Both the position numbers and the translations under genes were made by a program. This document shows, one piece after another, positions 15,660 through 63,742 of a stretch of DNA of 64,000 nt. Below the pieces are notes generated by a model that saw only the letters and a list, made by a program, of their open reading frames with translations, did not search any database and had not been told where the DNA came from. Location: NCBI GenBank assembly GCA_023078555.1, contig CM041196.1:12232985-12296984 (forward strand), in the 5' to 3' direction. Origin of the DNA: Ulva prolifera. Taxonomy: Eukaryota > Chlorophyta > Ulvophyceae > Ulvales > Ulvaceae. Position 1 is the stretch's first letter; the number at the start of each line of letters is the position of its first letter.

Positions 15660-16547
15660 GTCTCAGACACCGTGCTTGGCTACGGGCGGCGGATGGGGCC
15701 GATGAAGCGGTTAACCGCACGCTATGACAGAAACCTTGTGTGGATGGTCAGCAGGCGCTGCTTCAACACTGCCAGGGACGGCCGAGCGCCCGCCTCCACA
15801 GCCCTCATCGCGGTGTGCAGCTTTGGCAGAGCTGCTGGCCTGAGATCCTCTGGAACTGCAATCGGCACACCTGAACACTTCGCCACGTTGGCCTGATGAA
15901 GTGCACAGGGCTGGTACACTGAAGCGGCGTGATTTACCTGGCGGAAAATGTTCCCATCGACGTGAAGCATATGCATGCCATGGATGCATACCCACACAGA
16001 GTCAGCCATGCATTTGCCGAGCTAGGTAGGAGCGCATGGTGTCCGCGTCAGATATCACCTTGCACAGCATGGCTTCTGCCAAGTCGCTTACGTAGGAGTA
16101 GGCCCCTGTCGCCGCATGCATGCAGCGACGCGCTGCGGATGTAGACTTCGCTGCTCCGCGGCGCCCCTTCTGTCTCGGCAGGTACCCTGCTGCACCCTCT
16201 GTGTCTTCAGTTCTGGTATCGCGTGACATGGCGGAGCACGCATCCGCCTCGCGCAATGAGGGAGGTCCTGTGACGTCACCACATGGGTCTACATCAAAGA
16301 GACGCACGGCGCGAGCCTCGCCAGCCCCCCCTCCAGGTGGTCCGGTAGCCACTGCAAAGAGGCCAGTGCGGGGGGTGGAGTCGAGGTGTGGAGCCACCGC
16401 GCGCTGCGGTGCATGGCGCACAGCGCGGAGCACAGCATCGGGGCGAGGGCGGTAGTGTCTACAGGGAGCAGGCCGGGCAGGCTGCCGCGCTGCTTGTTCT
16501 TGCGCATGAAGTCCAGGAGGATACCCCCACATGGCTCCAGCACGCTA
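15660..16547 (-). pseudogene. Decayed protein-kinase C-lobe fragment (relic P1)
   Basis: Minus-strand matches to exons 4 and 5 of genes A and B. First part, 16547 to about 16030: VLEPCGGILLDFMRKNKQ, then LLPVDTTALAPMLCSAL (equivalent to the A/B stretch PPVDTVALGLMLCSAL), a frame change near WLH, then EARAVRLFDVDP in place of VRLSDFG, and AATGAYSYVSDLAEAML. The donor GT seen at this site in the other copies reads AC here. Second part, from 15870 after TGTTCAG: GVPIAVPEDLRPAALPKLHT and MRAVEAGARPSLAVLKQRLL, then a stop at 15722-15724; homology to RAVNCFIGPIRRP continues past it to about 15660. No N-lobe, coiled-coil or U-box exon is present. DFG and the catalytic loop are lost, so this cannot be an active kinase. 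Confidence 0.8.
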
Positions 16548-21522: not shown

Positions 21523-22690
21523 TTGAGAGCATGTGGCAGCAGTACGCGCATCTGGGACGACGTTCAGAGCTGTCACAGGACATACACATTGCCTGCTGTG
21601 TTGAGGCAGTGAATTCACCCAAGTATTCTCTGAAGCTTACTATCATGACCACTGATATGGTACCTGTCGCTCACATCTGAAATGTGTGTGGAGCTGAGAG
21701 ACCTGCGCACCTCATCAACGTGGTGAATGCCGACCGGGTGTGATGTGGAACCAAGCTCGGTGGATTATCAAGCACAGCATTTTTCCTGGTACATTTATCG
21801 CAAGGATGGCCGAGTCGCTCAGGCGATGTTACAGATGGCTTTCGACTTGCGCGCACGGTGCCTAAGGATCACAGAACGAGACGTCCAAGACAATAGCTGC
21901 TTCAAGTTGGTATCAAAGCAAAAAGCGCAATGACTTCAAGCCTTCCCCTCACTGCTGTGGTCGAGTCCCCCTTTGTTCAACGTGGGTCTCTCGCGACGGT
22001 GTGGACACTGCGTGCGATCACAGAGCTTGCTGCGTCCTTCCAATGGAACAAACAGATGCATTGAATGTCGATTCAGTGGCAGTCCTGGCTGCACTATCCT
22101 ATCGTTTCAGACAAATACGCAGTGACACGTTGCTGTTCAAACGATCCTGCCAACGATCCTGCCCACTTGCTGCCTGCTTTGTCCCGCCATCGTCACGTTC
22201 CAGGATATCTTCGTCTTTTCCATTGGTCATTGTGGCTATCTGAGTTGTCGAGGCTTACATTATGGAGGCCTGCAGCCGTCAAAGTTCACCGTCACAGCAC
22301 CCTCCAAGCCTGCCCTCCACAGAGTCAATTCTACAGCATCATCTTCTCAAGCCCTGAAATGCTTCTCCCAGGGAGTGCTGATTTCTGTCACGGCACATAG
22401 TGAATGCAGCATCTGAGGTGCAGGAGCTGCACAGAGCCTCACAGCCTCACAGCCTCACATGTCTGTGCTGCATGTATGCTTATGTCATGAACAGAACACG
22501 TCACATTCGTAACACTCGTGAGACACACACGTGGCTTGCCTTTTGTGCGCACAGATGGGCATTCTGCAACTTAGGGTTGACTGGTAGCTATCACAAGCTT
22601 GCGCTGCGCTCTTACGAGCTGCACTCAATCCGTGACCATGAGATCCAGTCACAGCCTCTTTGGAACTGCCTGCTGTGCATTCTGCAGCAG
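21523..22690. repeat. Repeat R, right part of the interrupted copy
   Basis: Continues the copy begun at 16555-16890 and follows 40683-41860 and 62142-63087, for example the GTGTGATGTGGAACCA stretch near 21737 against 40908. No conserved coding frame. The right end (22440-22690) matches 41640-41860, which contains GCTTGCGCTGC and TTACGAGCTGCACTC. Confidence 0.7.
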
Positions 22691-28851: not shown

Positions 28852-31800
28852 ATGGGCAACGTTGCGGACACCCTCGAAGGCATCAAGGACAGTGTCCCCG
28901 AGCATGCGGAGCCGGTGGCACGCAAGCTCGCAACGCTGGTGTCCACCGCAAAATCAAAATGCGCCAAATACGCAGCCAGAGAAACATGCTCCAAACTTTA
29001 CCATCTTCGCAGCGAGGCGGTGCGACGGAACATCCATTGATTCAGCTCTTCATGTCACAGATGTGTGTAAACTGGTGTTTTATGCTACATATGGTGACAA
29101 TTACTCAGGTCACTGAGCATGCTACGCCCTGTGTGCCACCGGAACGCTCGCATACAACCGAGGAACAGCCGAGGATGTGTGATTGTCACCCCCACCCCCG
29201 GTCACTAATTATAAATGAACGGCAATGGTCTTCAGGAACGGTTTCAGTCCATCATGCAAGGCGTCCAGCAGCTACTCCCCCTGCTCATAGCCTCTGTCGC
29301 CTCCTCCGCCAATGTCTCTGCCGCAGTGGCCGACCTCCAGAGCCGCGCCGCCTCCCTGCAGGCCTCCTCCGCGGAGGCCGCCGCACACCTCAGCCACCTG
29401 GGGGCCACCGTCACAGCTCTGGCGGCCTCCAGTGCCACCTCGGCTCAGATCGAGGAGTGTTTGGACACCCTGAAGGCCAGCCAGATGCAGCTCGATGAGA
29501 CCAGCACTGGGCTGCATGCGGTGCTCGAGGGGACTGCGGCTCTGCAGCAGCAGCTTGCTGCCGGTGTGGACAGCATCGTGGAGGCGGTGAACATGGTGCA
29601 GCGCAACTTCGATTCATTCTCCCGGCAGATGCTGACAATGCAAGAGGAGATGGACGGCAAAGTTGACATAATGATGGGGCTCTTATTGAAACTCTGCGGT
29701 GCGGCGGGCGTTGACACGCAGTCCGTGCAGCAAGGGCGCGTGTGGTCGGTGCGATACCGGAAGTCCCGCGCATCCTGACTATCCAGGAATTCCTACGTGT
29801 CTTTGTCTCCGCTGCATACGTTGTCACGGCTGTGCCTGAATCGATGATGCGCATGCAGACAGTATACAACGTATTTGCTTGAAGCTTTAGCTGCACAGCG
29901 CCACTAGCTCATGTAGATGGTCACACACGAGCAAGCGTCCTTGCAAATAGGTGCTGCAAGACCCGGCCTTCAAGCTGAGAATGGCTGTTGGCTGATGCCT
30001 GACCTGCCAACCTTGCTAGGGCAATGTGCATTCATCGGGAGCCAGCAACTGAGTCGGTAATGTGGTCGCCGCTGCAGATCGTCGGCCAAGTGATTGAAGC
30101 AGGTAACGGCAGCACGCTTCCGAACAGCGACCAGCCGAAGGAGTGGGCCGAAGCGATTAGGCAAGCGATCGCCTCGGGCAAACTCGCCATCTCGTCATGT
30201 GTCGTGCTGGGTGTACCCCTCATGCCAGCGGGGCCTCTCGGGCCCGTCACGCTGCCGTGCTGCAGCTTTGTGGTGTCCCACGCCGGAGCGCAGCAGATGC
30301 AGGCGGCCGGCAAGTGCCAGGTGTGCAAAGCTCCACTGAAAGCCAACGTTCAGCTGCCGAGCAACGAGGCTGTTGCAGCAGCCGTGCAAGCTGAGAGCAA
30401 CGGCTTTGAGCCGAGGGTCTTGAAGCGCGCAGATGTGACCATCGACGTCAGCGGACAGAACAAGATCGGGTCGGGCGGGGAGGGGACTGTGGTGAGGGGC
30501 ACACTGCGAGGAGGCAGGGCGGTGGCCGTGAAGCAGCTGCCGCTGCCGGCGGTGGTGGGGGCGACGGAGGTGGCAGGGATGAAGCAGGTGGTCTCAGCTT
30601 CGTACGTCGCGGGGGTGGCGAGCCCGTATGTTTGCAAGCTGCATGGCTCCTGCTGGACGGACTCGGAGCTGTGGTGCGTCCGCTTCTGCAGCGGGCTTGT
30701 GTTGGTGTGTGTGGGTGTGGAAGCCAAGGGTCAGGCTGACATTTCTCACTCTGCACGTGCCCATGTGCCATTCTCAGCTAATCACAAGTTTCTGTGAACA
30801 AATTGTCCGAGATGCACCATTTGGCCCTGCACGTGACCACTTCCGTCAACGCATGTTTCATGCACTGCAGGCTCGTCATGGAGCTCTGTGATGGCAGCCT
30901 GGCTGACCTCGTGCCCCGGGTCAGGCACGAACGTGACATTCCGGGCCTGCCTCCTGTGGACACGGTCGCCCTCGGCCTCATGCTGTGCTCCGCGCTAGAC
31001 GCTGTGCACCACAGGGCGCGCTTCCTGCACCTGGATATCACCCCCGGCAATGTGCTGCTGACGGCGCCGACCGGGTCTGGCGAGGCGGGTGACGAGGCGC
31101 GCGGCGTGAGGCTGTCCGACTTTGGGCTGTCGGAGCACCTCCCGTCCTGCGTGCTCTCTTCTCTGAAGACAAACGGGCCGCAGTCGCTCGTGCATGGAGT
31201 GGCCAAGGGCACGCCGGGGTACGCGCCCATGGAGCAGCTGCAGGGGAAGGCGCAGCGACGCAGCGACATCTACAGCCTGGGCGCGACCCTGTTGTACGCG
31301 GCGACAGGGGGGCACCCGTTTGGGGGGAAATCGCAGGAGGTCATACATTTCCGGCTGATGTCAGGTGCGCTGAACTCCTGGTGGGGACCATGTTCTGTTG
31401 ATTCAACTGCTGACCAGCGGGCTGGCTCAGAACCGACTTGAAACCGTTCTGCGGATCAACGGTGTACACGTAGCTGCTCACTAGTTCCACACCTGATGTG
31501 ACCAGATATCTATCGATACATGTTTATCCATCCGCATGCATACTGGCATTATCAACACGATCCTCGAGTGCTTATGGAGCGGAGAGGATGTCGCCCATGC
31601 ATGCGCTGAGGTTGGCTGCGCTGTAGCACCTCAGCCTGCTGCAGATGGGGTACTCTAGAGCTCCCAAGCGCGTGAATGTGTGGTGAGCAGCTGTGTCCAG
31701 AGTGCATGTTCATGGCATATCGCCGCAGCCACCACAATCGTACTCTGTCTCCGGAGATTCGTCAAGACGACTTTGAGTTGCGCTATAAATGTTGCCTTGA

Positions 31801-34800
31801 GGTGATTTCCAGGTGGTTTGGCCCAAAAGTCACATGTCCATTCAATGTTGCCCATGTTCTTAGAGCGCTTTCAGGATACAATACGTTCAACCAGATCCTG
31901 TAGACTGTGCTCCGGGCGCCTGCAAGGCCCGTGAGATTCATGTGTGATCGTTGGTGTCTGCTGCAGGCAACCCGATGCCGGTCGCCGATCACGTCGAGCC
32001 TGCGGCTCTGAAGGACCTCATCACGTCGATGACAGCTGTCGAGGCAGGCGCCAGGCCGGCCCTCGCAGAGGTGCAGAAGCGCCTTCAGGCAATTTACAGT
32101 GCTCTGTTGGCGGAGGGCGCGGCGACCTGCTTCATTGCGCCACTCGGCCACATGCCAGCCATCAAGGCTCCAGGACGCCACACTGCTGAAAGGAAGTCAG
32201 GTCTGGACTGTGCTAACAAGACCGAGCAGAAGACTGCCAACGTTGATGCGCCTGTGGACTCGATGAGGTCTCTAGCCCTCCAGTCTGCCCCAGAGTCGGA
32301 CGCGGTGGCATACGTTCACACAACCAACAGCCTGCACACCACACAACCAGCCCGGTCAAGTGGCGGTCACTTTGAGGTGTGTCCTTGCACGTGCCGTCGT
32401 TACAAAGCAGAGTCTGTGCTGGACATGCGCAACACAGTACAAGGAGCATATGTCCATAAAACTATGGGCTGTCTGGGATACTCACGTCGGTCGCTGCTTT
32501 GCGCTGCTGTTCTACACGGAACTTGGCTGGATACTCAGCCCCTGTGATTTGAGATTAGATCTGCGCCTGCAGCCGATTCTTCCGTATGGGCTTGTACATG
32601 CGAGCACGCGGGTTTGTTGCATATGTTGCGTGTGTCGCGTAATCGCCGAGCACATTGACACAGTCTTCCACCACCAATGTGCCCTCTCCGGGTGCTTCCA
32701 GATCAGGCCATGCACCTTCACAGGCACGCCCATCTTCAATTTGCCTTTGCAGGATGTGAGCGGGATCCACACCGTGGAGGACCTCGTAGCTTGCCTTCAT
32801 GCCGGCGCCCCCGACCGCGTCTTCGACTTCGGCGGCCGCACCCTGCGCCTCACTTCGAACTGGAAGGCTGCTTCAGACATGTACGCTGCGTGGTGGGAGA
32901 GTAATATGACTGCTTGTGCGCAGCTGAGCCAAGGCGGAGGAGTCGTGTCCAACGTGACTCTGGCGATGGACGTTTATGACCGCGTGGTGTCCCTCTGCGG
33001 ATCAAGTCGGGTTGAGTTCCACAACGTCACATTCCAGGGTAAGATCATTTGATAGCAGCCGTCTTGAGCAGCCGCGGGTCTACATGCCACGGTGCTATGG
33101 GCATATATTGGCTCTGCACGTGTAATTATTATGAGTTCACTGCAATTGACGACCTGCGTCCAGGTGGCCTCGTCAGATCGGCATTCGAAAGCTGAGCCCA
33201 TGTGCATGAATCATGTCTCCCACAACACCACCACGTCTGTCCGGATGGCACGTCATCCAATGCACATGACGATCCACAAGCACGCCCGACATGTGTGTGT
33301 GTGTGTCTGTGTGTGGCACTTCCCGGACCCAGCCCTATCTGCAGGCACAGTTTTCCCTGTCCGCTCACATCCTTCACGGGCACCACTGATCGCCTGTCTC
33401 TGTGCAGGGGGATGGCTCTTTAACATCGGCAAGCATTGCCATGTTGAGCTCAGAGAAGCCACCTTTGAGGGCAGCGGGATTGTTGCAGTGTTGGGCGCCA
33501 CGGTGCACCTCCACGGCGGGCGGCTGCAGGCCCAGCGGCCTTATGGCGACAATGGGGATATCCAGTGTTTAGTGCAGGATGAGGGCACCACCGTGCACGC
33601 CACTGGCACTACATTCGATGTCGTCATTAGAGTACTTCAGGGCGCCGCCTTCACTGGCGACCGCGTGCATGTCCGGCTTGGAGACGAGGACACCGGCGGC
33701 ATTACTGCCGCTGGCAAGGGCAGCCAGGTCACCTTGAAGTACTCTAATGTGACCGCCGCCTCGGGCGTTACCCAGGCAAGGTGCGTAGGTGTCATCGTGG
33801 GGCGTGGGGCCGTGGTCAACATGACCAGGTGCACAGTGGAGCAGCTCCGCCGGGGCGTCTTAGTTATTGCAGGGGCCCGTGCCTGTCTCTACGACTGTTT
33901 GATAAGTGCTGCGAAGGACGGGCTGTTGATTAAGGGGGCAGAAACGGCGGTCAAGGCGGTGGGGTGCACCTTCCGTGGCAACAGAGCTGCTGTGGTTTCC
34001 GCAACCGACGTTGTCACGGACAACGTCTCACTCGACCGATGCAATGTGGAGGGGCCAACACGCACATTCGAGAGCCAGGAACAGCATCAAGCTGGCGAGG
34101 CTGAGCCTGCATCTGCGCCGAGGCAGGCACAGGCAGGCCGCGGCCCGGGAGGAGGAGGCGGCGTCCAGTCCGCCCCAGCATCAGCCTCAGCGGCAGGCGC
34201 CCAGGCTGTCGATCGCACGCCCAGCCAGCAGCCTGTACCGGAACGACAACAAGCGGGTAATCTAGATGGCGGTCGCCAAGACAGCGGTCACGAGGTGTGC
34301 CACCACTACATGTGTCTGCGCCCCAGAGCCGCTGCCGCACGAGATGGCGAACGGCACAGCCACTGCGTGCCCTGCGCTGGAGGCTGTTTGAGATTCTGCA
34401 TAGGTGGAAAGGATGGCCTATATATGCAATTCAGGCTTCCCGGAAGCCTGCTTGCACACCTGTGTGGGTATCTGCGCATAATGCTGCACAGATTCCCGCT
34501 GCATCGGCTGGCACACTGCGGGTGCATTGAGGGTAGGGCATGCACCCACACTGCCACTGGCGCATCTTTGTCCACTCTGTCTGTGCAGGATGTGAGCGGC
34601 ATCCGCACTGTCGAGGACCTGTTTGCACGCCTTGATGCTGGCACGCCTGGCCGCACCTTCGACTTCGGCGGCCGCACGCTGCACCTCACTTCAAACTGGA
34701 AGGCTGCCTCAGATACACATTGTCCGGATTGGAACATACCAGTGAAAGTCTGTGCGCAGCTCAGTTGCGGCTGCGGGGTCGTCTCCAACGTGACTCTGGT

Positions 34801-36008
34801 GCTGGGTGGTGCCGATCGTGTGATCCACCTCCGCGGATCAAGCCGGGTCGAGTTCTGCAACGTCACAGTTCAAGGTGGGTGCACTTGGCGCCAAGCGCGG
34901 CTGCATTATTGACGTACAGCACTGCCACAGCGATAACACTGCGTTTGTGCCAACTGCCGGCTGTACATGTGCATTTCTCTGAATCCCTATGAGACTGCAA
35001 TCATCCCCACTGCTTGCTCTTACCATACCTGACCAGAATCGGGGGCAGCATCGGGGCCCTCCAGGCCGCGTATGCCTTGTTCAAATTCAGGTACCACCAT
35101 ACCAGTCAACACCACCTGCCATCCATGCGCAGGGCTATGATATATACACCGCAGCAAGCGTCCATCTGTCCATGCACAGACATGGTATTGTCAGGATGTT
35201 GCAACGTGTGGCGACACAGCTCTGGCTCCTGTTGGGCACCAATGCACTAGCACCGCGCAACGCCCACCTCTGTGCAGGGGGCATGCTTTACTGCGAGGGC
35301 AAGCTTTGCCGCATGGCTCTCAGGGACGCCACCTTTGAGGGCTGCCGGTTGGAGGTTGTGTGGGGCGCGGCGGTGCACCTCCACGGCGGCCGCCTGCACG
35401 CCCTGCCACCGCAGGTCGCTAAAGAGCGGCACCTTTGTAGAGCATCTGATGAGGGTACCATTGTGCACGCCACTGGCACCACATTCGACGGCGACATTGG
35501 CACATTTCGGGGCGCAGCCTTTACTGGCGAGCACGTACATGTCAGGCTGGGCAGTGAAATTGAACATGGCATTGCTGCCGAAGGCAAGGGCAGCCGCGTC
35601 ACTCTGAGTGGATGTGATGTCGCCTGGGCATCAGGCGCTTCCCCTGCACAGAGCATTGGTGTGATTGCAAATCAGGCGGGTGTGGCCGACATGACGAACT
35701 GCACCGTGGTAGCTCTCCGTCGCGGCGTGCAGGTGTTGGGACGTGCCTGCCTGCGCGACTGTCGGATTCAGGCGGAAGGGGACGGGCTGTGGGTTGTGGG
35801 GGCGAATGCGACGGTCAAGGCGGTGGGGTGCACCTTCCGCGGCGGAGCATCGGACGTAGCCCTAGCCACGAACGTGGCCGCAGGCAATGTTTCACTGCAA
35901 AACTGTGATGTCGAGTCAACGGTGGAGTTTGAGGAAACAGGAGCAGGCGCACAGATTGGAGCTGTGATAGGAAGGTTAAAGAAGCTAGCTCGCTGGGTGC
36001 AGTCGTAG
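28852..36008 (+). CDS. Gene A: coiled coil-U-box-like-kinase-double beta-helix protein, complete, nine exons
   Basis: Exons 28852-29019, 29236-29748, 30078-30673, 30871-31364, 31967-32376, 32753-33038, 33408-34294, 34589-34874, 35278-36008; all GT-AG, phases 0,0,2,1,0,1,0,1, total 1456 aa. Residues 57-227 form an Ala/Gln-rich coiled coil. About 268-331 resembles a U-box (GPVTLPCCSF, CQVCKAPLK, LPSNEAVAAAV), the E2-binding fold of plant-type ubiquitin ligases. The kinase (about 353-640) has IGSGGEGTVVRG, VAVK (Lys379), FLHLDITPGNVLL (Asp481; the HRD Arg is Leu, so non-RD), SDFG (Asp509), GTPGYAPME and RRSDIYSLG. Exon pairs 6+7 and 8+9 encode two beta-helix units, each starting DVSGI-TVEDL and rich in G-x-N/C-T-V rungs (GCTFRG, NCTVV). 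A Gln/Ala/Pro-rich linker (about 1050-1118) separates them. No signal peptide or membrane segment seen. Likely a signalling kinase; ligand unknown. Confidence 0.88.
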
Positions 36009-36995: not shown

Positions 36996-39456
36996 TCATG
37001 TATAGGTAGTCAAATGAATCATGTGGCTACCTGCCTGCTTGATTGACTCGATTATGTGGATGTCAGCACGCACTGTACGACCTTGCATGTATAGTGTACG
37101 CGATAAATCACCAAACATACGTGCAATGCCCATTTTGCAGCGGTCAAACGAAGTGGTCGCTGCCGCCGCTGCCGCTACGCCGGCGCCATGGCTGCTAAGC
37201 CGGCAATCCGCCGCTTGGACACGCCCCTTCACCCACAGAGCATCACCGCCCGCACTCACCACCGTGTCGCGCATGCATGCCTGTGCCCCGGTATCTACCT
37301 GGACCCCTCTCACCGTGCAGTCAGACAAGCTCACCGTCGCATCCTCTTGTGAACAGGCACCGCGTGTCACGTCCCTGAGTGTAAACCGGCAGTGCTGGCC
37401 TTCGCACACGAGGGTGCAACCTGCACACAGCTCTGGATGGGCTGGGGCTGCCATGGCAATCTTCGAGGGCAGTGCTGCTGCCCTTGCGCCGGGGCCGCCC
37501 ATGGAGCCACGACTCCTCTGCCATTGAACAGCTCACGCTTGGAGTTGGCGATTTCCATGCGGGAGTTCAGGCGCAGCGTTGTGCCGTGGTCGTTGAAGTT
37601 GTGGGCCATGTGGAGCGGGCAGGACTCTAGGCGCTCGAACAGGATATTCACGGTGCGAATGCCAGCGGCGTCCAGCACAGGCTGAGCGCCTCACATGCGG
37701 CTGCTTGCTGTGTGTGATGTGTGTGTTCGCTGGTAGAGGCCACACCATATCAAATGCATCATATAGAAAAAACAATGTTTAGGGTGGAATGCAATTGGAA
37801 TCCCACACCAGAATCAGCTCCTAGTGCAGGTTACCAGACAAAGCCACACCTGCTATGGTAGACACCGCGAGCTTGCATCTATGTACAGGTGCCTGAACGA
37901 GACCGCGTGCATGCATGATACACAAGGCAGGTCGTTGTGAACATGCATGTTGTACATGCATTTTCACACCTCCATGATCACCTCCTGTTCACCGGCCGAG
38001 TCGGCACTATGCTATCCAGCACACGAGTCTGCATGCATGGCCGCCGACACCAGCGCCGGAGGGGTTGCAGGTCTCACTAACAGATGCTGCCCCGGGCACA
38101 GCTGGCGGCATGTCGGAGCTAACATCCGGAAGGCGATCCTCGCTGCTAAGCTCACGAAGAGAGCCTCCAGCGTTGCCCGGAGCCTCTGTATCAAACCGCC
38201 AGTTTTCAGCTGCTACGCCAGGGCTGTTGGCATTCGACGGTGCGAGCAGAGACGTGACGTACAGTAGGGCCGGGCGCTGGCTCATCCGCATGTGTCTGAA
38301 CAGGCTTGCACATGCATGTTGTGCATTCTTGCACGTTTTCTTATGCCATGTGAAAGGACAGCGCGTAAACTAGATTCGCCGGCTTGCACACGTCATGTTG
38401 AACAGACGTGCTGCGGATGTAGGCACACCTGACCGTCTACAGCCCCTGCGACACTCGAGTGCCTGCGGTTCCGCTCTAGCACGTCCTCAATAGCTTCTTT
38501 CGTTGAGGGAGCATCTCTCTCGGTCGAGGCATCCTCCGCCCCCGCCGCGGTCTGACGCACCGTCCTGGGCTGCGGCCGGCGGATGGGGCCGATGAAGCAG
38601 TTTACCGCACGCGATGACAGAAGCTTTGCGTGGATGGTCAGCAGGCGCTGCTTCAACACTGCCAGGGACGGCCGAGCGCCCGCCTCCACAGCCCTCATCG
38701 CGGTGTGCAGCTTTGGCAGCGCTGCGGGCTTGAGGTCCTCTTGATTTCTGATCGGCACTCCTGAACACTTCCCCGCTTGGCCTGATGAAGTGCGCAGGGC
38801 TGGTGCAATGAAATGGCGTGATGTACATGGTTCCGGCACCGGAAAATGTTCCTGTCGACATGAAGGCAAATGCATGCCACAGATGCATGCACACACATAG
38901 TCAGCCATGCATGTGCAGTTCCAGGCAGGAGAACATGGTGTCCGCACCAGATGTCACTTGGCACGACAAGGCTTCTGCCAAGTCGCTTGCGTGGGAGTAC
39001 GCCCCTGTAGCCGCTTAAGGCAGCGTCCCGCCGCGGGGTGTAGACATCGCTGCTCGCCTCCGCGGCGCCCCTGCTATCTCGGCAGGTACCCTGCCCCCCC
39101 CCCCCACTGCCTCTTCGATGCCAGTATCGCATGACATAGCGGCGCAGGCAGTAGCCGCCTCGCGCAATGAGGGAGGTCCTGTGACGTCACCACGTGGATA
39201 TGCATCAAAGAGACGCACGGCGCAAGCCTCGCCAGCCCCCCCCTCCAGCGGGTCCAGCGTCCATTGCAAACAGGGGGGTGGGCGGGTGAAATCGAGGTGG
39301 AGCCACTGCGCACTAGGGTGCATGGCGTCCAGCGCGGAGCACAGCATCGGGGCGAGGGCTGTAGCGTCAACAGGGAGCAGGCCGGGCGGCCTGTCGCGCC
39401 CCTTGTTCTTGTGCATGAAGTCCACGAGGGTGCCCCAGCATGGCTCCTGCACGACC
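36996..39456 (-). pseudogene. Locus D: inverted, decayed kinase C-lobe plus beta-helix relative of genes A/B
   Basis: Minus strand, four exons with phases matching A/B: 39456-38948 (kinase C-lobe), 38760-38429 (kinase tail), 37681-37537 and 37420-36996 (beta-helix). C-lobe: EPCWGTLVDFMHKNK, LLPVDATALAPMLCSALDAM, WLHLDFTRPPP (Asp kept, Asn lost) and RLFDAYPRG where A has LSDFG. A run of 12 C's on the plus strand (39094-39105) encodes poly-Gly in the activation segment. An in-frame TAA (39015-39017) stands where A has TLLYAATG, followed by AATGAYSHASDLAEALSC and a GTGCGG donor. The tail (AMRAVEAGARPSLAVLKQRL and 60 further residues) and both beta-helix exons (AAGIRTVNILFERL; GCTLVCEGQHCRFTLRD) are open, but the last exon is 425 bp against 731 in A. 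N-lobe, U-box and coiled-coil exons are absent. Probably a pseudogene; a truncated transcript with open beta-helix exons cannot be excluded. Confidence 0.75.
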
Positions 39457-41900
39457 CTTCACACGGGGGCGACGTTACGTCCTCTGGGGCACGACCTCAT
39501 GCTCAGCGGATCTGCAGATGGGTGCTGTAAGGTGTGCATGCATGCGAGTTAAAGCGGACAGCATGTTAACACGGCATGTGCTGCAGACGCCTCGGATGTT
39601 GAGACGAGGCGTCTGCAGCACAGCCTTGGGATGTACATGCCCCGCGAGGCCGGGCAGGCTGCAGGTACCGGCTGCTGACAACCTAGGGTGATGTGCTCGA
39701 ATGCACTCATGCTCCCCATGCACTCGTGCGGTTGGCCGTGGATTCTCACGTGGTGGCCACTCGCGGTGCGGCAGTCCTTCTGGGAACAGTCGTTGGCATT
39801 GGTACTGATGGTGAATCAACATGGAAAGACCAGACGCACATATATGCAAGCACAGGTTTAGAGCACACCAGTGCTGTGTTGAATGGTTTCACAGGTGCCT
39901 CACACGCCTGGAAGGGTGCTGCATTGCACAGATACAAGATTCGTGTCAAGCTGCTTTTCATGCATTCTGGATTGCACGGGCGGAGTGCAGAAGCATGCAG
40001 GCTGCGTTGCGCAGCTGGAGCCGACAAGCAGGCGTGTCGACGAGGTGATGCAGCAGGCTGGCGTTTGACAGACACGCATTCATTTCTGGTTGCCAGTACA
40101 GGAGGAGACGGTTGAATGGGAGTGACCTGACAGGGGCACAGTGGGGAGGGCCGGGGACTCACATGGACGTCATGGGGAGTGCCTGCTGCCCGGCTGCTCT
40201 GCCGAGGCACACCGCAGACCCCCGGCCTGGCTCGAAGATGCTGAGGATAGCGCTCTGCAGGTGTCACATGCGGAGGTGTGGTGAAGGCCTCGGAAGCCGG
40301 GATGCTGGGTGACGAGACGCCGCTTGTGCTTCGTGGCCGCTGCTGTCGCCCTCACGGCTGGCCTCTGGAATCCTGAACACACGACTGCATGTGACACTTG
40401 CAACAAATTCAGGTTCCCATGTGGGTGGGTTGACAAGGTCCTGATCATGAAGGCTAGTGATATGCACTGCACCAGATTCAAATGCGCCGAACTGCTGAGA
40501 TAGCATGTTCAAGGATCTCTTCTTTATTCCGGACAAAAGTCCTCCTCGCAGCATGTTGTATACCAGCGTCGTTCCCAATGTTTGTTGCTCGCACGGTCAG
40601 GAGTACGGCCCAAGAGTCGTCCAGGTAGCCACCACACAGGCGCAAACTGCCGGAATATTCCATGTCAGCATACGTAGGCTAGTTGAGAGCATGCGGCAGC
40701 AATACGACTCTCCTGGGTCGACATCCACAACTGACACATGCCAAACACGTTGCCTGTTGTATTCAAGCAGCGCATTCACCTCTGCGAGCTCTTAAACTAA
40801 CTATCACGGCCATTCATATGGTCTGGTGTTGCTCATATCTGACATTTATGTGAAGTTGAAAGACGTAGAGACCTGCGTACCTCCTGAGCGTGGCCCAAGA
40901 TGCTGACAGGTGTGATTTGGAACCAGGCTCGGTGCACTATCATGCAGAGCTATTTCTATATATTTTTCATGCAAATATCGCTCAGCTGCTCGTCGAAACC
41001 ACAGATGGCTTGCGACTTGTTCTCAGACTGACGCGCGGTGCCCGAGGATCACAGGACGAGACGTCCAAGGCACCAACAACGTTGGTTGTGACATCAAGGC
41101 AGTCAGAAGGCCAACTATTCCGCGGCCTCTGTTCAATGCTGTGGTCGAGTCCCCCTTTGTCCAACGTGGCTGTGGGTCTCTCGCGACGGTGTGGATACTG
41201 CAGGCGACCACAGAGCTTGCTGCGTCCCATTGCAGACATTGACTTTCGACTGCAGTAGCAGTCCAGGTTGCAGTGTCCTTTTGTCTCAGAATATGCTTAG
41301 TGACAAGTTGCTGTTCAAACGATCCTGCTCACGATCCAGCCCACTTGCTGCCCACTTCGTCCCGCCATCGTCACGTTCCAGGATACATTTGTCCCTTCCA
41401 GTAGTTCTAGTGTTTAACTGAGTCGCGAAGGCTTGCATCATGCAGGCCTGCAGCCGTCGAAGACCACCGTCGCAGCGCCCTCCACGTCTGCCGTCCACAA
41501 CGTCGAGTCTACACCATCATTGGCTCAAGCCCTGAAATTCTTTTCTCAGGATGCGCTGGCTTCTGTCATGGCGGCTAGCGAAGGCAGCATCCGAGGTGCA
41601 GTAGCTGCGCAGAGCCTCACAGCCTCACCTGTCTGTGGTGCTTATGGCATGCACAGAACAGCTCACTTTCGTGCCACACCTACAAACAGAACATATGGCA
41701 TGCCTTTTCTGCGCGCAGACGGAATTCTGCATCTCTGACTTGACTGGCAGCAACCAGATGCTTGCGCTGCGGTCTTACGAGCTGCACTCGATCCGTATCC
41801 ATGAGAGCCAATCACAGTCTCCTTGGAACTGCTGCTTCGATGCCACCACCAGCCTCAAACCCGGGCGCACCCAGCTCGTTGAACCCCACATGTAGGTCTG
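39457..41900. repeat. Repeat block Y, copy 1 (includes repeat R)
   Basis: Together with the kinase C-lobe before it (from about 38750), it is nearly identical to about 60220-63088. Differences are scattered single bases and small indels, so the duplication is young. The part from about 40110 onward is repeat R, also related to 16555-16890 plus 21523-22690. Identical-looking plus-strand frames in both copies (ending 40115 and 61580) show no coding-type substitution pattern. Confidence 0.75.
39577..39622. repeat. Perfect 17-bp hairpin in block Y, copy 1
   Basis: TGTGCTGCAGACGCCTC at 39577-39593, 12-nt loop, exact complement at 39606-39622. The same hairpin is intact at 61038-61083 in the other copy although the bases just before it differ by a short deletion. 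Confidence 0.8.
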
Positions 41901-42429: not shown

Positions 42430-42620
42430 AGGCAGAGCCGCCCCTGAGCGACATGCCATGAGGCCGTGCGGGGCACGGTCGTGAGTGGCCGGGCGGCGAC
42501 GGCGCCGTGGCATGCAGAGCCGAAGTCGACGAACAAATGCACTGCCGCAGCGGCCTGGGATGGGAGGAGCCTGCATCGGTGGATCAGGCACTTGTGCTCT
42601 GTGACAGGTCACGGCAGGAA
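42430..42620 (-). mobile_element. Short fragment of the DIRS-like element
   Basis: Matches the first part of the RNase H frame near 13114 (LFVDFGSACHGAVAARPLT) and its upstream flank. The match is short and the rest of the reading frame is absent, so this is a broken remnant. It sits at the left end of a repeat R copy, the same arrangement as at 13 kb. Confidence 0.6.
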
Positions 42621-44690: not shown

Positions 44691-45009
44691 TGTGAGTGTC
44701 TGTCCTCCTGTTGCGCTGCCTACTTTTGTGCTTTCCCTGGTGCCACAGGTCCCCTCCGCAATGATGATGGAGTGATTTGGTAGCATAACCCTTGTGGTGC
44801 GTAGTACTGACTAACCTGCTCACAGAGCTGTCACCTAGGACACTTCGGTCACAGCTCCTTGTGATGGGTCCCTACTTCTGGCTGCTGCTGTGAACTTGTC
44901 CCTGTGACCTTGTTGTTGTGTACATCTGTGGTAAGCTAGAGCCAAGCAAGCTGCCATGATTGGTGCTGCACAGACAACTGGTGGCTGCTGCATTGATTTC
45001 TCATGAGCA
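44691..45009. other. Spacer between repeats R and F
   Basis: About 320 bp with no open frame or repeat that I recognise. Confidence 0.4.
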
Positions 45010-50665: not shown

Positions 50666-53600
50666 ATGAGCAACGTTGCGCGCACCCTCGAGGTCGTCAA
50701 GGGCAGTGTTCCGGAGCACGCGGCGCCGGTGGCGCGCGAGCTTGCGGCAATGGTGACCACGGCGACATCAACATGCGCCAAATATGCAGCCAGAAACGCA
50801 TGCTCCAGCATATTTCACCTTCGCAGCGAGGCGGTGCGTTTGAATACATCCCTGTCACAGATGCGTGCAAGTGTTCATGATCCATGCAACATGTTGATGA
50901 TAACTGCGACTCGGGTTGAAGCGCCCCCCCCCCCCCCCCCCCCCACATGGTGCTCTACATGAAACCAGTGACTGCCTTCAGGAACGCCTTCAGACCATCA
51001 TGCAAGGCGTCCAGCAGCTCCTCCCCCTGCTCACGGTCTCCGTTGCCTCCTCCGCCAATATTTCCGCCGCCGTCGCCGACCTCCAACGCCGCGCCGCCTC
51101 CCTTCAGGCCTCCTCCGCGGAGGCTGCCGCACACCTCGGCCACCTGGAGGCCACCGTCACAGCTCTGGCGGCCTCCAGTGCCACCTCGGCTCAGATCGAA
51201 GAGTGTATGGACACCCTGAAGGCCAGCCAGATGCAGCTTGGCGATACAGACACTGGGATGCATGCGGTGCTGGAGGGGACTGCGGCTCTGCAACAGCAGC
51301 TGGCTGCCGGTGTGGACAGCATCGTGGAGCCCGTAGACATGCTGCAGGATAAATTCGAATCGTTCTCCGAGCGCATGCTGACAATGCAAGAGGATATGCA
51401 AGAGGAGATCAGCGGCAAACTCAACATGATGATGGGACTCTTAGCGAGCCTCTGTGGAGCGGCGGGCATCGACACGCAGTCCATGCCGTCGGACCGCGTC
51501 TGGTCGGTGCGGCACCAGAACTCCCGATGTAGGCTCGAAAATTTTTAAACTGAAGAAGGGGGATTAGGTAATTTGGTTTTTTTGGAAGTAACCCTGTTCT
51601 CGTAGTGCGCACACGCATGGCGGAATGTACAGCGGTGAAATGCAGCCATGTCGGCTGCCGCTACTGTGCAGGACTGCTATGTGCTACAGTTCTGACTCGT
51701 CACTGCACATACACAGCGGCACTAGCATACGCAGAGGGAAACAATCAATCCATTGTCCTGAAGGACACAGTACACGCAACTGCAGATAGGTACAGCATAC
51801 CCTGGCCTTCTAGCTGAGGGTGGATTGTGGCTCGTGTATGTGCCCTGCCATTCAGGTGGCTTGATGTGAATTCTTCACCGGGCATTGCCAGTGGCAGCAG
51901 CTGAGGCACAGATCTGGCTGCGAGCTGTGCAGGTCGTCGGCCAAGTTATCGAAGCGGGCGACGAGAACGAGCTGCCGAACAGCGACCAGCCGAACGAGTG
52001 GGCCGAAGCGATTAGGCAAGCAATTGCCTCGGGCAAATTCGCCGTCTCGTCGTGTGTCGTGCTGGGCATGCCCCTCATGCCAGCGGGGCCTCTCGGGCCC
52101 GTCACGCTGCCGTGCTGCAGCTTTGTGGTGTCCCACGCCGGAGCGCAGCAGATGCAGGCGGCCGGCAAGTGCCAGGTTTGCAAGGCTCCACTGGCGTCAG
52201 ACGCCCAGCTGCCGAGCAACGAGGCGGTTGCAGCAGCCGTGCAAGCTGAGAGCAACGGCTTTGAGCCGCGGGTCTTGAAGCGCGAAGATGTGATAATCGA
52301 TGCCAGCGGACAGAACAAGATTGGCTCGGGCGGGGAGGGGACTGTGGTGAGGGGCACACTGCGAGGAGGCAGGGCGGTGGCCGTGAAGCAGCTGCCGCTG
52401 CCCGCGGTGGTGGGGGCGAAGGAGGCGGCAGGTGTGAGGCAGGTGGTCTCAGCTTCGTATGTCGCGGGGGTGGCGAGCCCGTACGTTTGCAAGCTACATG
52501 GCTACTGCTGGACGGACTCGGAGCTGTGGTACGTCCGCTTCTGCAGCGGGCTTGTGTCGGTGTCTGTGGATGTGTACATGTGGAGTTGTGGGTGAGGGAC
52601 CCCAGGCTCCGGGCGGCACAGCTTACCCTACATGTGTGCATATGCCCTTCTCAGCTCACATCAAGTGCATTTTCCTCAACTGTGCGAGATGCTCCATTCT
52701 GCCACACCCATGAATCAAACCCGTCCACGTGTGTCCCATGCATTGCAGGCTCGTCATGGAGCTCTGCGATGGCAGCCTGGCTGACCTCGTGCCCCGGGTC
52801 AGGCATGAACGTGACATTCCGGGCCTGCCACCTGTGGACACGGTTGCCCTCGGCCTTATGCTGTGCTCGGCGCTGGACGCTGTGCACCATAGGGCCCGCT
52901 GCCTCCACCTGGATATCACCCCCGGCAATGTGCTGCTGACGGCGCCGACTGGGTCTGGCGAGGCGCGCGGCGTGAGGCTGTCCGACTTTGGGCTGTCGAA
53001 GCACCTCCCGTCCTGCGTGCTCTCTTCCCTGAAGACGAACGGGCCGCATTCGCTAGTGCATGGAGTGGCCAAGGGCACGCCGGGGTATGCGCCCATGGAG
53101 CAGCTGCAGCGCAAAGCGCAGCGGCGCAGCGACGTCTACAGCCTGGGCGCGACGCTGCTGTACGCGGCCACAGGGGCGCACCCGTTTGGGGGGGAATCGC
53201 TAGAGCTCATCCTCTTCCAGCTGATGTCTGGTGCGCTGAACTCCTTGTGGGAACCATGTTCTGTTGATTCGACTGCTGACCAGCGGGCTGGCTCGGAACC
53301 GACTTGAAACCGTTCTGCGGATCAACGGTGTACACGTAGCTGCTCACTTGTTCCACAACTGCTGTGACCAGATACATGTTTGTCCATCCGCATGCATACT
53401 GGCATTATCAACACGATCCTTGAGTGCTTATGGAGCGTAGAGGATGTCGCCCATGCATACGCTCAGGTTGGCTGCGCTGTGGCACCTCGAGCTCAGCCTG
53501 CTGCAGATGGGGTACTCTAGAGCTCCCAAGCGCGTGAATGTGTGGTGAGCAGCCGTGTCCAGAGTGCATGTTCATGGCATATCGCCACAGCCACCACAAT

Positions 53601-56030
53601 CGTGCTCTGTTTCCAGAGATTCGTCAAGTCAACCTTGAGTTGCGCTGTCAATGTTGCCTCGAGGTGATTTCCAGGTGGTTTGGCCCAAAAGTCACATTTT
53701 CATTCAATGTTGCCCATGTTCTTAGCGTCTTCAGGGTACACTAGGGTCGACCAGATTCTTTAGACTGTACTCCGGGCGCCTGAAAGGCCCGTGAGATTCA
53801 TGAGAGATCGTTGGTGTCCGCTGCAGGCAACCCGATGCCGGTCCCCAATCACGTGGAGCCTGCGGCTCTGAAGGACCTCATCACGTCGATGACAGCTGTC
53901 GAGGCAGGCGCCAGGCCGGCCCTCGCAGAGGTGCAGAAGCTCCTCCAGGCCATTTACAGTGCTCTGTTGGCGGAGGGCGCGGCGACCTGCTTCATTGTGC
54001 CACCCGGCCACATGCCGGCTATCAAGTCTCCAGGACGCCACACTGCTGACAGAAGCACTGGACTTGTCAGTTCTAACAAGACCGAGCAAAAGACTGCCAA
54101 CGTTGATGCGCCTGTGGACTCGATGAGGTCTCTAGCCCTCCAGTCTGCCCCAGAGGCGGACGCGGTGGCATACGTCCACACAACCAATAGCCTGCCCAGC
54201 ACAGAACCAGCCCGGTCAAGTGGCGGTCACGAGGTGTGGCCTTGCACGTGCCATCGCCACAGAGCGGAGTCTCTGCTGGACATGGGTTGTCTGGGATACT
54301 CACGTCGGTCGCTGCTTTGCTCTGCGGTTCTACACGTGAGTTGGCAGGCTGCTGTCACGTTACAAGCGCTACTCAAGCCCTGTGATTTGAGATTAGATCT
54401 GCACCTCCAGCCGATTCTTGCGTATGGGCGTGTACATGCGAGCCCGTGGGTTTGTTGCATATGTTGCATGTGTCGCGTCAACGCCGAGCACATGGACACA
54501 ATCCTCCACCACCAATGTGCCATCTCCGGGTGCCTCCAGCGCAGGGCACGCACCTTCAGAGGCACGCCCATGTTCAATCTGCCTTTGCAGGATGTGAGCG
54601 GGATCCACACCGTGGAGGACTTGCTTTCAAGCCTTCATGCCGGCACGCCTGGCCGCACCTTCGACTTTGGCAGCCGCGTGCTGCACCTCACCTCCAACTG
54701 GAAGGCCGCCTCAGATACACACTGCCTGGATTGGACAATACCAGTGACAGCCTGTGCGCAGCTGAGTTGCGCCTGCGGGGTCGTCTCCAACGTAACTCTG
54801 GCGCTAGATGGTGCCGATCGTGTGATGTGCCTCCGCGGATCAAGTCAGGTCGAGTTCTGCAACGTCACAGTTCAAGGTGGGTGCACTTGGCGCCAAGCGC
54901 GGCTGCACCATTGACGCAAAGCACTGCCCAGTGATCGCACTGCGTTTGTGCAAACTGCTGGCTGTACATGGGCACTTTTTCATAATACCTATGAGATTGC
55001 CATCATCCCCACTGCTTAAGCTTACTCTTACCATACCTGACCACCCGCGGCGTCGGGGGCCGTCCAGGCCGCCCATGCCTCGTTTGTTTTTATGGTACCA
55101 CCATACCAGTCATCACCACCTGCCATCCATGCGCAGGGCTATGATACATACATCGCTGCAAGCGCACATCTGTGTATGCACAGACATGGTATTGTCAGGA
55201 TGTTGCAACGTGTGGCGACACAGCTCTGGCTCTTGTTGGGCACCAATGCACCAGCACCGTGCAACGCCCAACTCTGTGCAGGGGGCGTGCTTTTCTGCGA
55301 GGGCAATCTTTGCCGCGTGGTTCTCAGAGACTCCACCTTCGAGGGCTGCCGGTTGTCTGTGCAGTGGGGCGCGGCGGTGCACCTCCACGGCGGCCGCCTG
55401 CACGCCCTGCCGCCGCAGGTCGCTAAAGAGCGGAACCTCTGTAGAGCATCTGGTGAGGGCACCACCGTGCACGCCACTGGCACCACATTCGACGGCGACA
55501 TTGGCACATTTCGCGGCGCAGCCTTTACTGGCGAGCATGTACATGTCAGGCTGGGCAGTGAAATTGAACATGGCATTGTTGCCAACGACGAGGGCAGCCG
55601 CGTCACTCTGAGTGGATGTGATGTCGCATTGGCATCAGGCACCCCCCCTGCACAGAGCATTGGTGTGATTGCACATCAGGCGGGTGTGGCCGACATGACG
55701 AACTGCACCGTGGTAGCTTTCCGTCGCGGCGTACAGGTGTTGGGACGTGCCTGCCTGCGCAACTGTCGGATTCATGCGGAAAGGGACGGGCTGTGGGTTG
55801 CGGGGGCGAATGCGACGGTCAAGGCGGTGGGGTGCACCTTCCGCGGCGGAGCATCGGACGTAGCCATAGCCACCAACGTGGCCGCTGGCAATGTTTCACT
55901 GCAAACTTGTGATGTTGAGTCAACGCGGGAGTTTGAGCAAATAGGAGCTGGCGCACAGACTGGAGCAATAGAGCGAACTGGAGCTGTGACAAGAGGGATA
56001 AAGAAGCTGGCTCGCTGGGTGCGGTGGTAG
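50666..56030 (+). CDS. Gene B: coiled coil-U-box-like-kinase-single beta-helix protein, complete, seven exons
   Basis: Exons 50666-50833, 50982-51506, 51933-52528, 52749-53230, 53827-54233, 54591-54876, 55282-56030; GT-AG introns, phases 0,0,2,1,0,1, total 1070 aa. Paralogue of gene A with the same intron positions. N-terminus MSNVARTLEVVKGSVPEHAA, coiled coil (57-231), U-box-like segment (PVTLPCCSF, CQVCKAPLA, LPSNEAVAAAV), then the kinase: IGSGGEGTVV, VAVKQLPLP, LHLDITPGNVLL (non-RD), SDFGLSKHL, GTPGYAPME, RRSDVYSLG. All catalytic residues are kept, so it should be active. It has one beta-helix unit (exons 6 and 7) instead of two. Exon 6 starts like A exon 6 (DVSGIHTVEDL) and continues like A exon 8 (AGTPGRTFDFG, SDTHCLDW), and the introns on its two sides match those two A introns respectively. 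C-terminus GIKKLARWVRW. Intron 1 carries a run of 21 C. Confidence 0.88.
50924..50944. repeat. Homopolymer of 21 C in intron 1 of gene B
   Basis: Lies 37 bp before the exon 2 acceptor. The corresponding intron of gene A has only CACCCCCACCCCCGG. It extends the polypyrimidine region ahead of the acceptor. Confidence 0.9.
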
Positions 56031-59520: not shown

Positions 59521-60039
59521 CTATCAATATGCACTGCCGTGTACAAGCGAGTCCCGTGTGAGTGCGCCGTTTGAGCACGAAGGTTCAGGGAACTCCGTGC
59601 GTCAATCTGTTCCATTGGCATCTGCACGTGTCGGGGATGGATGGGTAGGCAGGCGTTCAGAATGCACAGATCGCTGATGGCTGAGCTGCCTCGATCTCTA
59701 CAGTCGTGTACCAGCTGCTGCGACAGCTGTGTCTCCATGTCTTCTGAGTTTCTGTCCACTCCTGTGGCGATATCTCCTAGATACCTACTCTTGTGCTTTC
59801 CCGCTCCTAGTAGCGCCTCCAGCATTTTCTAGGACCTCTGACTGCGAGTCTTCAGCTGCTATGCCAGGGCTGTTCCACATTCCACGGTGCGAGCAGAGAC
59901 GGCCGTATAGCAGGGCAGGGCGCTGGCTCATCCGCATGTGGATGCACAGGCTTGCACATGCATGCTCACTGGCTTTGCTCGTCGAGGGAGCATCTCGTCG
60001 AGGCAGTCTCCGCCCCCGCCGCGGTCTCAAACACCGTGC
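59521..60039. repeat. Repeat block X, second copy
   Basis: Nearly identical to about 15157-15670 in order, including GCACAGATCGCTGATGGCTG (15300 and 59663). It is thus the 3' flank of relic P1, not that of locus D, although the sequence to its right matches locus D. Confidence 0.7.
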
Positions 60040-60934
60040 TTGGCTACGGGCGGCAGATGGGGCCGATGAAGCAGTTTACCGCACGCTATGACAGAAGCTT
60101 TGTGTGGATGGTCGGCAGGCGCTGCTTCAACACTGCCAGGGACGGCGGAGCGCCCCCCTCCACAGCCCTCATCGCGGTGAGCAGCTTTGGCAGCGCTGCG
60201 GGCTTGGGTTCCGATCGGCACTCCTGAACACTTCCCCGCTTGGCCTGATGAAGTGCGCAGGGCTGGTACAATGAAATGGCGTGATTTACATGGTTCCGGC
60301 ACCGGAATATGTTCCTGTCGACATGAATGCAAATGCATGCCACAGATGCATGCACACACATAGTCAGCCATGCATGTGCAGATCCAGGCAGGAGAACATG
60401 GTGTCCGCACCAGATGTCACTTGGCACGACAAGGCTTCTGCCAAGTCGCTTGCGTGGCAGTACGCCCCTGTAGCCGCTTACGGCAGTGTCCCGCCGCGGG
60501 GTGTAGACGTCGCTGCTCGCCTCCGCGGCGCCCCTGCTGTCTGGGCAGGTACCCTGCCCCCCCCCCCCCCCCCCCCCACTGCGTCTTCGATGCCAGTATC
60601 GCATGACATAGCGGCGCGCGCAGGCAGTAGCCGCCTCGCGCAATGAGGGAGGTCCTGTGACGTCACGACGTGGATATACATCAAAGAGACGCACGGCGCA
60701 AGCCTCGCCAGCCCCCCCCTCCAGCGGGTCCTGCGTCCACCGCAAACAGGGTGTTGGGGGGGGGTGAAATCGAGGTGGAGCCACTGCGCGCTAGGGTGCA
60801 TGGCGTCCAGCGCGGAGCACAGCATTGGGGCGAGGGCTGTAGCGTCAACAGGGAGCAGGCCGGGCGGCCTGTCGCGCTGCTTGTTCTTGTGCATGAAGTC
60901 CACGAGGGTGCCCCAGCATGGCTCCACCACGAAC
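60040..60934 (-). pseudogene. Decayed protein-kinase C-lobe fragment (relic P3), mosaic of P1 and D types
   Basis: C-lobe exon 60934-60411 after GTGTGCAG: FVVEPCWGTLVDFMHKNKQ, LLPVDATALAPMLCSALDAM, WLHLDFTPP, RLFDVYPRRDV. It shares with locus D the in-frame TAA (60478-60480) at the position of TLLYAATG and the poly-Gly tract, here 21 C on the plus strand (60557-60577). The exon is 15 bp longer than in D, keeping the frame. The tail exon from 60223 begins GVPIG, has lost bases compared with D, then regains the frame at LPKLLTAMRAVEGG and stops near 60086. No N-terminal or beta-helix exons. A relic, not an active kinase. Confidence 0.8.
60557..60577. repeat. Homopolymer of 21 C within the relic P3 exon
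   Basis: Equivalent to the 12-C run at 39094-39105 in locus D. The difference is nine bases, three glycine codons on the minus strand. Confidence 0.88.
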
Positions 60935-63088: not shown

Positions 63089-63742
63089 GTGCGCCTCCAC
63101 GGCGGCCGCCTGCACGCCCTGCCACCGCAGGTCGCTAAAGAGCGGGTCCTCTGTAGAGCAGTGGAGGAGGGCACCACCGTGCACGCCACTGGCACCACAT
63201 TCGACGGCGACATTGGCACATTTCGCGGCGCAGCCTTTACTGGCGAGCACGTACATGTCAGGCGGGGCAGTGAAATTGAACATGGCATTTTTGTCGAAGG
63301 CAAGGGCAGCCGCGCCACTCTGAGTAGATGTGATGTCGCCTGGGCATCAGGCGCCTCCCCTGCACGGAGCTGGGGTGTGGTTGCACAGCAGGCGGGTGTG
63401 GTCGACATGACCAACTGCACTGTGGTAGCTGGTGATCGCGGCGTGGAGGTGTCAGGACATGCTTGCCTGCGCGACTGCCGGATCCGGGCGGAAAAGGACG
63501 GGCTGTGGGTTGCGGGGGCGAATGCGACGGTCGAAGCGGTGGGGTGCACCTTCCGCGGCGGATTATTGGACGTAGCCATAGCCACCGACATAACCGCAGG
63601 CAATGTTTCACTGCAAAACTGTGATGTTGCGTCAAGGCGGGAGTTTGAACGCCCTAGAGCAGGTGCACAGACTGGATCAATAGAGCGCACTGGAGCTGCG
63701 AAAGGAGGGTTAAAGAAGCTGGCTCGCTGGGTGCGGTGGTAG
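63089..63742 (+). pseudogene. Gene C: last-exon fragment of a gene A/B relative
   Basis: 217 open codons ending in TAG at 63740-63742, matching the last exon of gene A from residue about 35 onward: RLHGGRLHALPPQVAKER, GTTVHATGTTFDGDIGTF, NCTVVAGDRGVEV, GCTFRGG, and the end KKLARWVRW. The ERTGA motif near the end resembles gene B more than A. The exon's 5' part (about 100 bp), its acceptor and all upstream exons are missing, replaced by repeat R at 63088. The frame has stayed open, so truncation may be recent or the segment may be read from an upstream acceptor; I saw no such acceptor in frame. Confidence 0.82.

What the first reader, a model, noticed from the sequence alone, without database searches (positions are those of the whole stretch)
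28852..36008. Kinase fused to a U-box-like segment, a coiled coil and two beta-helix units
The sequence directly gives nine phase-consistent exons and intact kinase motifs. Plant U-box kinases pair a U-box with a kinase, but a C-terminal pair of pectin-lyase-type right-handed beta-helices is an arrangement I do not know from any described family. It could be a cytosolic sensor in which the beta-helix binds a polymer or partner and the kinase/U-box signals or ubiquitinates.
Basis: partly seen in the sequence, partly recalled or inferred. Interest (0 to 1): 0.85.

Follow-up and report, generated by a model that had tools for sequence, protein, structure and literature searches.

The report
Kinase with RING-like and beta-helix domains
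This stretch holds what looks like a real, intact gene, with a second intact copy nearby, that joins a signalling enzyme to a possible ubiquitin-tagging segment and to one or two beta-helix domains that may recognise something inside the cell.

Summary
Nine exons at 28852-36008 join without a stop into 1456 aa, GT-AG, intron phases 0,0,2,1,0,1,0,1. The best proof is a second intact gene, 50666-56030 (1070 aa, seven exons, matching phases), with the same order: coiled coil, RING/U-box-like segment, kinase, beta-helix, but only one helix unit. Exon indels between the two genes are multiples of three in 4 of 4, intron indels in 7 of 22. dN/dS is 0.19 in the kinase, 0.52 in the helix.

Kinase and right-handed beta-helix are supported. 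A U-box is not shown: no Pfam hit, a useless model (pLDDT 32.5), and a U-box-only profile that 5 of 300 shuffles match. Against a mixed RING/U-box profile 0 of 300 shuffles match it, so I call it a degenerate RING/U-box-like domain.

Gene 2's single helix starts like unit 1 and switches to unit 2, so it probably lost a unit from a two-unit ancestor. Best reading: an intracellular recognition kinase, perhaps also an E3 ligase, in a fast-duplicating cluster. Partner, activity and organism are unknown.

The parts
28852..36008 (+). gene 1, nine exons, 1456 aa
   Evidence: all GT-AG, no internal stop; conserved against gene 2
28852..29748 (+). exons 1-2: helical N-terminus and coiled coil (aa 1-227)
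   Evidence: heptad score reached by 0 of 200 shuffles; dN/dS 0.37 and 0.39; Pfam only sub-threshold coil families and MLKL_N at E 0.04
30078..30673 (+). exon 3: RING/U-box-like segment (aa about 263-339) and start of the kinase N-lobe
   Evidence: hhalign against mixed RING/U-box profile, score 26.18, best of 300 shuffles 15.52; no Pfam hit; dN/dS 0.27 over 69 codons
30871..32376 (+). exons 4-5: rest of the kinase and linker
   Evidence: Pfam Pkinase 4.9e-24 over the joined kinase; dN/dS 0.19 over 300 codons; motifs
32753..34294 (+). exons 6-7: beta-helix unit 1 (from aa 728) and low-complexity linker
   Evidence: PF13229 25.5 bits, just under cut-off 25.9; dS 0.757 to unit 2
34589..36008 (+). 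exons 8-9: beta-helix unit 2 (from aa 1119) and C-terminal tail
   Evidence: PF13229 28.0 bits, cut-off 25.9; AlphaFold2 model of exon 9, mean pLDDT 66.1, pTM 0.71
50666..56030 (+). gene 2, intact paralogue, seven exons, 1070 aa, one beta-helix unit
   Evidence: last exon 55282-56030, start corrected by one base
63089..63739 (+). third beta-helix piece, cut off at its 5' side inside the last exon; probably a pseudogene fragment
   Evidence: PF13229 28.7 bits; dN/dS 0.93 and 0.98 against the intact copies, against 0.55 between these
37113..39455 (-). decayed relative: kinase remains (39455-38582), then beta-helix remains (37672-37113), same order on one strand
   Evidence: tblastn E 2.4e-12 and 3.8e-11 (kinase exons 4, 5), 4.7e-5 (helix), weaker pieces 0.002 to 0.09
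59891..60933 (-). decayed kinase remains
   Evidence: tblastn E 1.4e-11, 1.2e-9, with stops
15692..16543 (-). decayed kinase remains
   Evidence: tblastn E 1.1e-9 (two pieces), with a stop

Best explanation
Gene 1 and gene 2 encode a family of large soluble (inferred) protein kinases. Shown by sequence: an N-terminal coiled coil, a kinase with most catalytic motifs, one or two right-handed beta-helix units, in one gene under purifying selection. Supported but not shown: a degenerate RING/U-box-like domain before the kinase. Proposed working: the coiled coil makes oligomers; the beta-helix solenoid binds a partner protein or a glycan inside the cell; binding brings kinases together, so that they phosphorylate each other or the bound partner; the RING/U-box-like domain, if it still binds an E2, lets the same molecule ubiquitinate the partner. 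The helix part is the recognition side (less constrained than the kinase, gained and lost as a unit of two exons with phase-0 borders); the kinase is the output side. Oligomerisation, binding, activation and ubiquitination are all inferred.
For: Two intact genes with the same order and purifying selection in every domain except the last 27 codons; kinase Pfam 4.9e-24; beta-helix Pfam above cut-off for unit 2 and a solenoid model; heptads; RING/U-box-like profile signal; helix less constrained than kinase (replacement:silent 51:32 against 22:38, Fisher p 0.004); unit loss by recombination; cluster with three decayed kinase remains and a third helix piece. Precedent for a beta-helix that recognises substrates in an E3: FBXO11 CASH domains (passages of PMC8825234).
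Against: No U-box or RING by Pfam, 5 of 300 shuffles reach the U-box-only score and 1 of 300 the score against TRAF6+TRIM21 only; useless AlphaFold model for exon 3. The looser helix could be mere relaxation rather than recognition: dN/dS 0.52 is still under 1. No expression, ligand or activity data. Foldseek matches of the helix model are weak (0 of 313 at E <= 0.001).
Confidence: 0.45

Rival explanations
1. A kinase whose RING/U-box-like segment has lost E2 binding and is only a structural remnant; the beta-helix targets the kinase to a structure or substrate. No ubiquitin step at all.
For: RING zinc ligands are mostly missing (C41, C61, C62, C80, C83 of exon 3 remain; read, RING pattern recalled); no Pfam match; U-box-only profile weak.
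Against: The segment is well conserved between the genes (dN/dS 0.27, 69 codons, dN 0.043).
Confidence: 0.35
2. A beta-helix enzyme acting on a carbohydrate, regulated by the attached kinase.
For: Foldseek neighbours of the helix model include lyases, pectin methylesterases and depolymerases.
Against: Matches are weak (0 of 313 PDB and 0 of 646 viral matches at E <= 0.001) and follow the fold; profile search of the PDB found nothing at E <= 1; no signal peptide seen. Catalytic residues were not tested.
Confidence: 0.08
3. Two adjoining genes wrongly joined: a kinase gene and a beta-helix gene.
For: No transcript data; the joining introns 5 and 7 of gene 1 are ordinary GT-AG introns.
Against: Same junction in gene 2, in phase, with an open frame even unspliced; same order kinase to helix in the decayed minus-strand relative; exon 6 has no ATG at its conserved start.
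Confidence: 0.07

Closest known systems
Plant and algal U-box kinases (PUB proteins with a kinase domain)
   Same: An E3-like segment, coiled coil and kinase in one protein. Chlamydomonas has 30 PUBs; the additional domains listed include STKc, STYKc and coiled coil (passages of PMC4378952; also passages of PMC8875423).
   Different: No U-box profile match here; no beta-helix among the 13 additional domains named in the passage.
FBXO11 (SCF ubiquitin ligase subunit with three CASH beta-helix domains)
   Same: Intracellular right-handed beta-helix solenoid linked to ubiquitin ligation; CASH domains said to be important for substrate recognition (passages of PMC8825234).
   Different: F-box and UBR zinc finger instead of RING/U-box-like segment and kinase; no Pfam F-box hit here.
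Brown-algal LRR-ROCO candidate immune receptors
   Same: A solenoid recognition part that changes by in-phase exon units next to a signalling part (abstract and passages of PMC11378527).
   Different: LRR exons of 72 bp and a GTPase; here a two-exon beta-helix unit and a kinase; no evidence of alternative splicing or positive selection here.
MLKL / HeLo-type kinases
   Same: Helical N-terminus before a kinase; weak MLKL_N match, E 0.04.
   Different: 13.9 bits against a cut-off of 27, and several unrelated coil families score as well or better; the kinase looks active.

Membership tests
Protein kinases (Pkinase PF00069) | profile match above cut-off | tested here: met
   85.6 bits, cut-off 31.7 (the joined sequence used there had two extra residues at the exon 3-4 joint)
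Protein kinases (Pkinase PF00069) | glycine loop, Lys, catalytic Asp/Asn, DFG | tested here: met
   positions; HLD in place of HRD; helix-C Glu not assigned
U-box E3 ligases (PUB) | U-box profile match | tested here: not met
   no family at E up to 10 (HMMER filters drop most matches above about 0.1); U-box-only hhalign probability 1.1%, 5 of 300 shuffles reach the score
RING/U-box superfamily | profile signal above controls | tested here: inconclusive
   mixed profile of 2 RINGs and 7 U-boxes: probability 58.8%, 0 of 300 shuffles, the six best of 138 windows of gene 1 all overlap the segment; TRAF6+TRIM21 alone: probability 6.4%, 1 of 300 shuffles
RING/U-box superfamily | predicted fold | tested here: inconclusive
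   exon 3 model pLDDT 32.5, pTM 0.27 from two sequences; the order of strands and helices is U-box-like but at this confidence means little
RING/U-box superfamily | E2 binding and ubiquitin ligase activity | not testable with these tools
   needs biochemistry
Right-handed beta-helix (PF13229) | profile match above cut-off | tested here: met
   unit 2: 28.0 bits, third piece 28.7 bits, cut-off 25.9; unit 1: 25.5 bits, not met on its own
Right-handed beta-helix (PF13229) | solenoid fold | tested here: met
   best of five AlphaFold2 models of exon 9: mean pLDDT 66.1, 134 of 242 residues at 70 or more, pTM 0.71; the other four average 53.9 to 28.9
Pectin/polysaccharide lyases and esterases | catalytic residues | not tested
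   only fold similarity was looked at
MLKL N-terminal domain (PF22215) | profile match above cut-off | tested here: not met
   13.9 bits, cut-off 27
F-box/SCF subunits such as FBXO11 | F-box | tested here: not met
   no F-box family among Pfam matches for exons 1-5 and both helix units

The most novel reading that the evidence does not exclude
A lineage-specific family of intracellular recognition kinases whose sensor is a swappable beta-helix unit: an in-phase two-exon cassette gained, lost and recombined between neighbouring genes, coupled in one molecule to a kinase and a RING/U-box-like ligase. In effect an immune-type or self/non-self receptor built on a beta-helix instead of leucine-rich repeats.
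Probability: 0.2. Interest if true: 0.82.

Novelty: new variant of a known kind. Interest (0 to 1): 0.55.

Why it matters
Kinases with a U-box and E3 subunits with a beta-helix are each known; I found no description of both with a kinase in one chain (searches; open-licence papers only). Two intact copies that differ by one whole helix unit, and a chimeric unit in one of them, make a natural test of whether the beta-helix is the recognition part, and of how a single-chain kinase/ligase could be built.

Tried and rejected
Rejected: MLKL/HeLo membership (E 0.04, among several coil families); PDB profile search of the N-terminus gave 4 weak matches, best E 0.29, coiled-coil proteins. Rejected as evidence: the polyadenylation word TGTAA, 27 and 31 times in the window on the two strands and not usable to mark gene ends. 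Fold search with the exon 3 model was not done because the model is useless. Relatives elsewhere: patterns from exon 3 and from the helix in viral contigs (17 and 70 stretches, none confirmed) and in genome contigs (278 and 23 stretches, none confirmed); these hold no eukaryotes by design, so this says nothing about relatives in algae or plants. Helix profile against the PDB: nothing at E <= 1. Rfam and tRNA scans of the window: nothing. Pfam on 20 chosen ORFs of the 83 of 150 aa or more: VWA pieces and the third helix piece only.

Errors of mine, mended later: the exon 1 query was read one base off frame; the joined kinase had two extra residues at the exon 3-4 joint; the last exon of gene 2 began one base early (right).

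Full report
What is there. The strongest support was not in the finding: a second intact gene lies at 50666-56030 on the same strand, 1070 aa in seven exons with the corresponding phases. Exons of the two genes are 80-93% identical (exons 1-5, 8/6, 9/7); introns 1-3 are 56-72% identical, introns 4, 5 and 8/6 88-93%. Indels are multiples of three in 4 of 4 exon cases and 7 of 22 intron cases.

Selection. NG86 dN/dS between the genes: exon 1 0.37, coiled coil 0.39, stretch before the RING/U-box-like segment 0.24, that segment 0.27, kinase 0.19, linker 0.50, beta-helix 0.52; the last 27 codons 1.51, too few to weigh. Replacement to silent changes are 22:38 in the kinase and 51:32 in the helix (Fisher p 0.004). 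The helix is thus less constrained than the kinase. This fits a recognition part, but also plain relaxation; no value above 1 is seen for the helix as a whole.

Domains. Kinase: Pfam 4.9e-24, 642 PDB sequences at E <= 0.001, best 9.9e-17, motifs. Beta-helix: Pfam above cut-off in unit 2 and the third piece, just below in unit 1. The best of five models of exon 9 is a solenoid of strands (mean pLDDT 66.1, pTM 0.71; the other four average 53.9, 48.7, 43.6 and 28.9). Foldseek found 313 PDB and 646 viral matches at E <= 10, none at E <= 0.001; by name many of the 50 listed in each are beta-helix proteins such as tailspikes, lyases and pectin methylesterases. Coiled coil: heptad score in exon 2 beyond 200 of 200 shuffles in each gene.

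The U-box question. Pfam has no U-box or RING match, the PDB none (7 weak matches, all PriB), and the model of exon 3 is useless (pLDDT 32.5). With hhalign, the two-sequence profile of aa 263-339 scores 26.18 against a mixed set of 7 U-boxes and 2 RINGs, where the best of 300 column shuffles scores 15.52 and the six best of 138 windows along gene 1 all overlap this segment. Against U-boxes alone the score is 13.86, reached by 5 of 300 shuffles; against TRAF6 and TRIM21 alone 17.66, reached by 1 of 300. A set that holds a RING consensus of my own making gives 27.15 and 0 of 300, which I do not count. So: a distant RING/U-box-like domain is likely, a U-box is not shown, activity is open.

How the helix units move. 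Units 1 and 2 of gene 1 are old (dS 0.757) against the split of the two genes (unit 2 to gene 2: dS 0.147). Along the 3' part of intron 5 and exon 6, gene 2 agrees with the unit-1 side of gene 1 at 106 of 121 informative sites and then with the unit-2 side at 55 of 66; the best single switch lies between 54614 and 54623, inside the first helix exon. Gene 2 therefore looks like the product of an unequal exchange that removed one unit; gain in gene 1 would need this pattern to arise otherwise. Each unit is a two-exon cassette with phase-0 borders. In gene 2, intron 5 (357 nt) and in gene 1, intron 7 (294 nt) have no in-frame stop; shuffles are open in 66 and 98 of 2000 cases, so this may be chance.

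Cluster. A third helix piece at 63089-63739 is cut inside its last exon and evolves almost without constraint (dN/dS 0.93 and 0.98). Upstream of it lies a stretch 95.3% identical to 38486-41631. Three decayed kinase remains lie on the minus strand, one of them followed by helix remains in the same order. This is a birth-and-death cluster.

Mechanism. Shown: gene structure, domain order, selection, unit loss. Inferred: oligomerisation by the coiled coil, binding by the helix, kinase activation, possible ubiquitination. The best precedent for an intracellular beta-helix as recognition part is FBXO11 (passages only, PMC8825234). For a solenoid changed in exon units beside a signalling part it is brown-algal LRR-ROCO (abstract and passages, PMC11378527).

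Novelty. Chlamydomonas U-box proteins include some with kinase and coiled coil; the passage seen names 13 additional domains, none a beta-helix (PMC4378952). Passages of PMC11096116 on algal domain combinations hold neither 'beta helix' nor 'pectin lyase'. Ten searches of an open-licence library (listings seen) showed no described protein with this combination. Eukaryote protein databases could not be searched, so relatives may well be annotated there. The organism is unknown; a green alga is my guess from introns, G+C (third positions 72%) and domain content.

Noticed in passing
59965-63088 and 38486-41631: A segment of about 3.1 kb is present twice at 95.3% identity; the second copy ends exactly where the third beta-helix piece begins, so it marks a rearrangement or an assembly joint.
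   Followed up: partly
28852-30200 against 50666-52050: Silent divergence between the two genes is about 0.3-0.47 up to the middle of exon 3 and mostly 0.06-0.36 after it, and intron 4 is as alike as the exons: a sign of gene conversion in the 3' part.
   Followed up: partly
34295-34588 and 54234-54590: Introns 7 of gene 1 and 5 of gene 2 are multiples of three and stop-free, so retained-intron proteins are possible.
   Followed up: partly
5251-5811 and 7061-7708, minus strand: von Willebrand A-like coding pieces (VWA 35.2 bits, cut-off 23.8; VWA_3 25.3 bits, below its cut-off 27) of another gene or genes.
   Followed up: no
19530-20302: Tandem array of a 183-base unit, 4.2 copies, inside long open frames.
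   Followed up: no
13026-15438 and 42460-44737; 21523-22674 and 40683-41836: Further long repeats within the window at 68-82% and 74% identity, probably mobile or duplicated DNA.
   Followed up: no
34060-34294: Low-complexity Gln/Ala/Pro/Gly linker between the two helix units, absent from gene 2.
   Followed up: no
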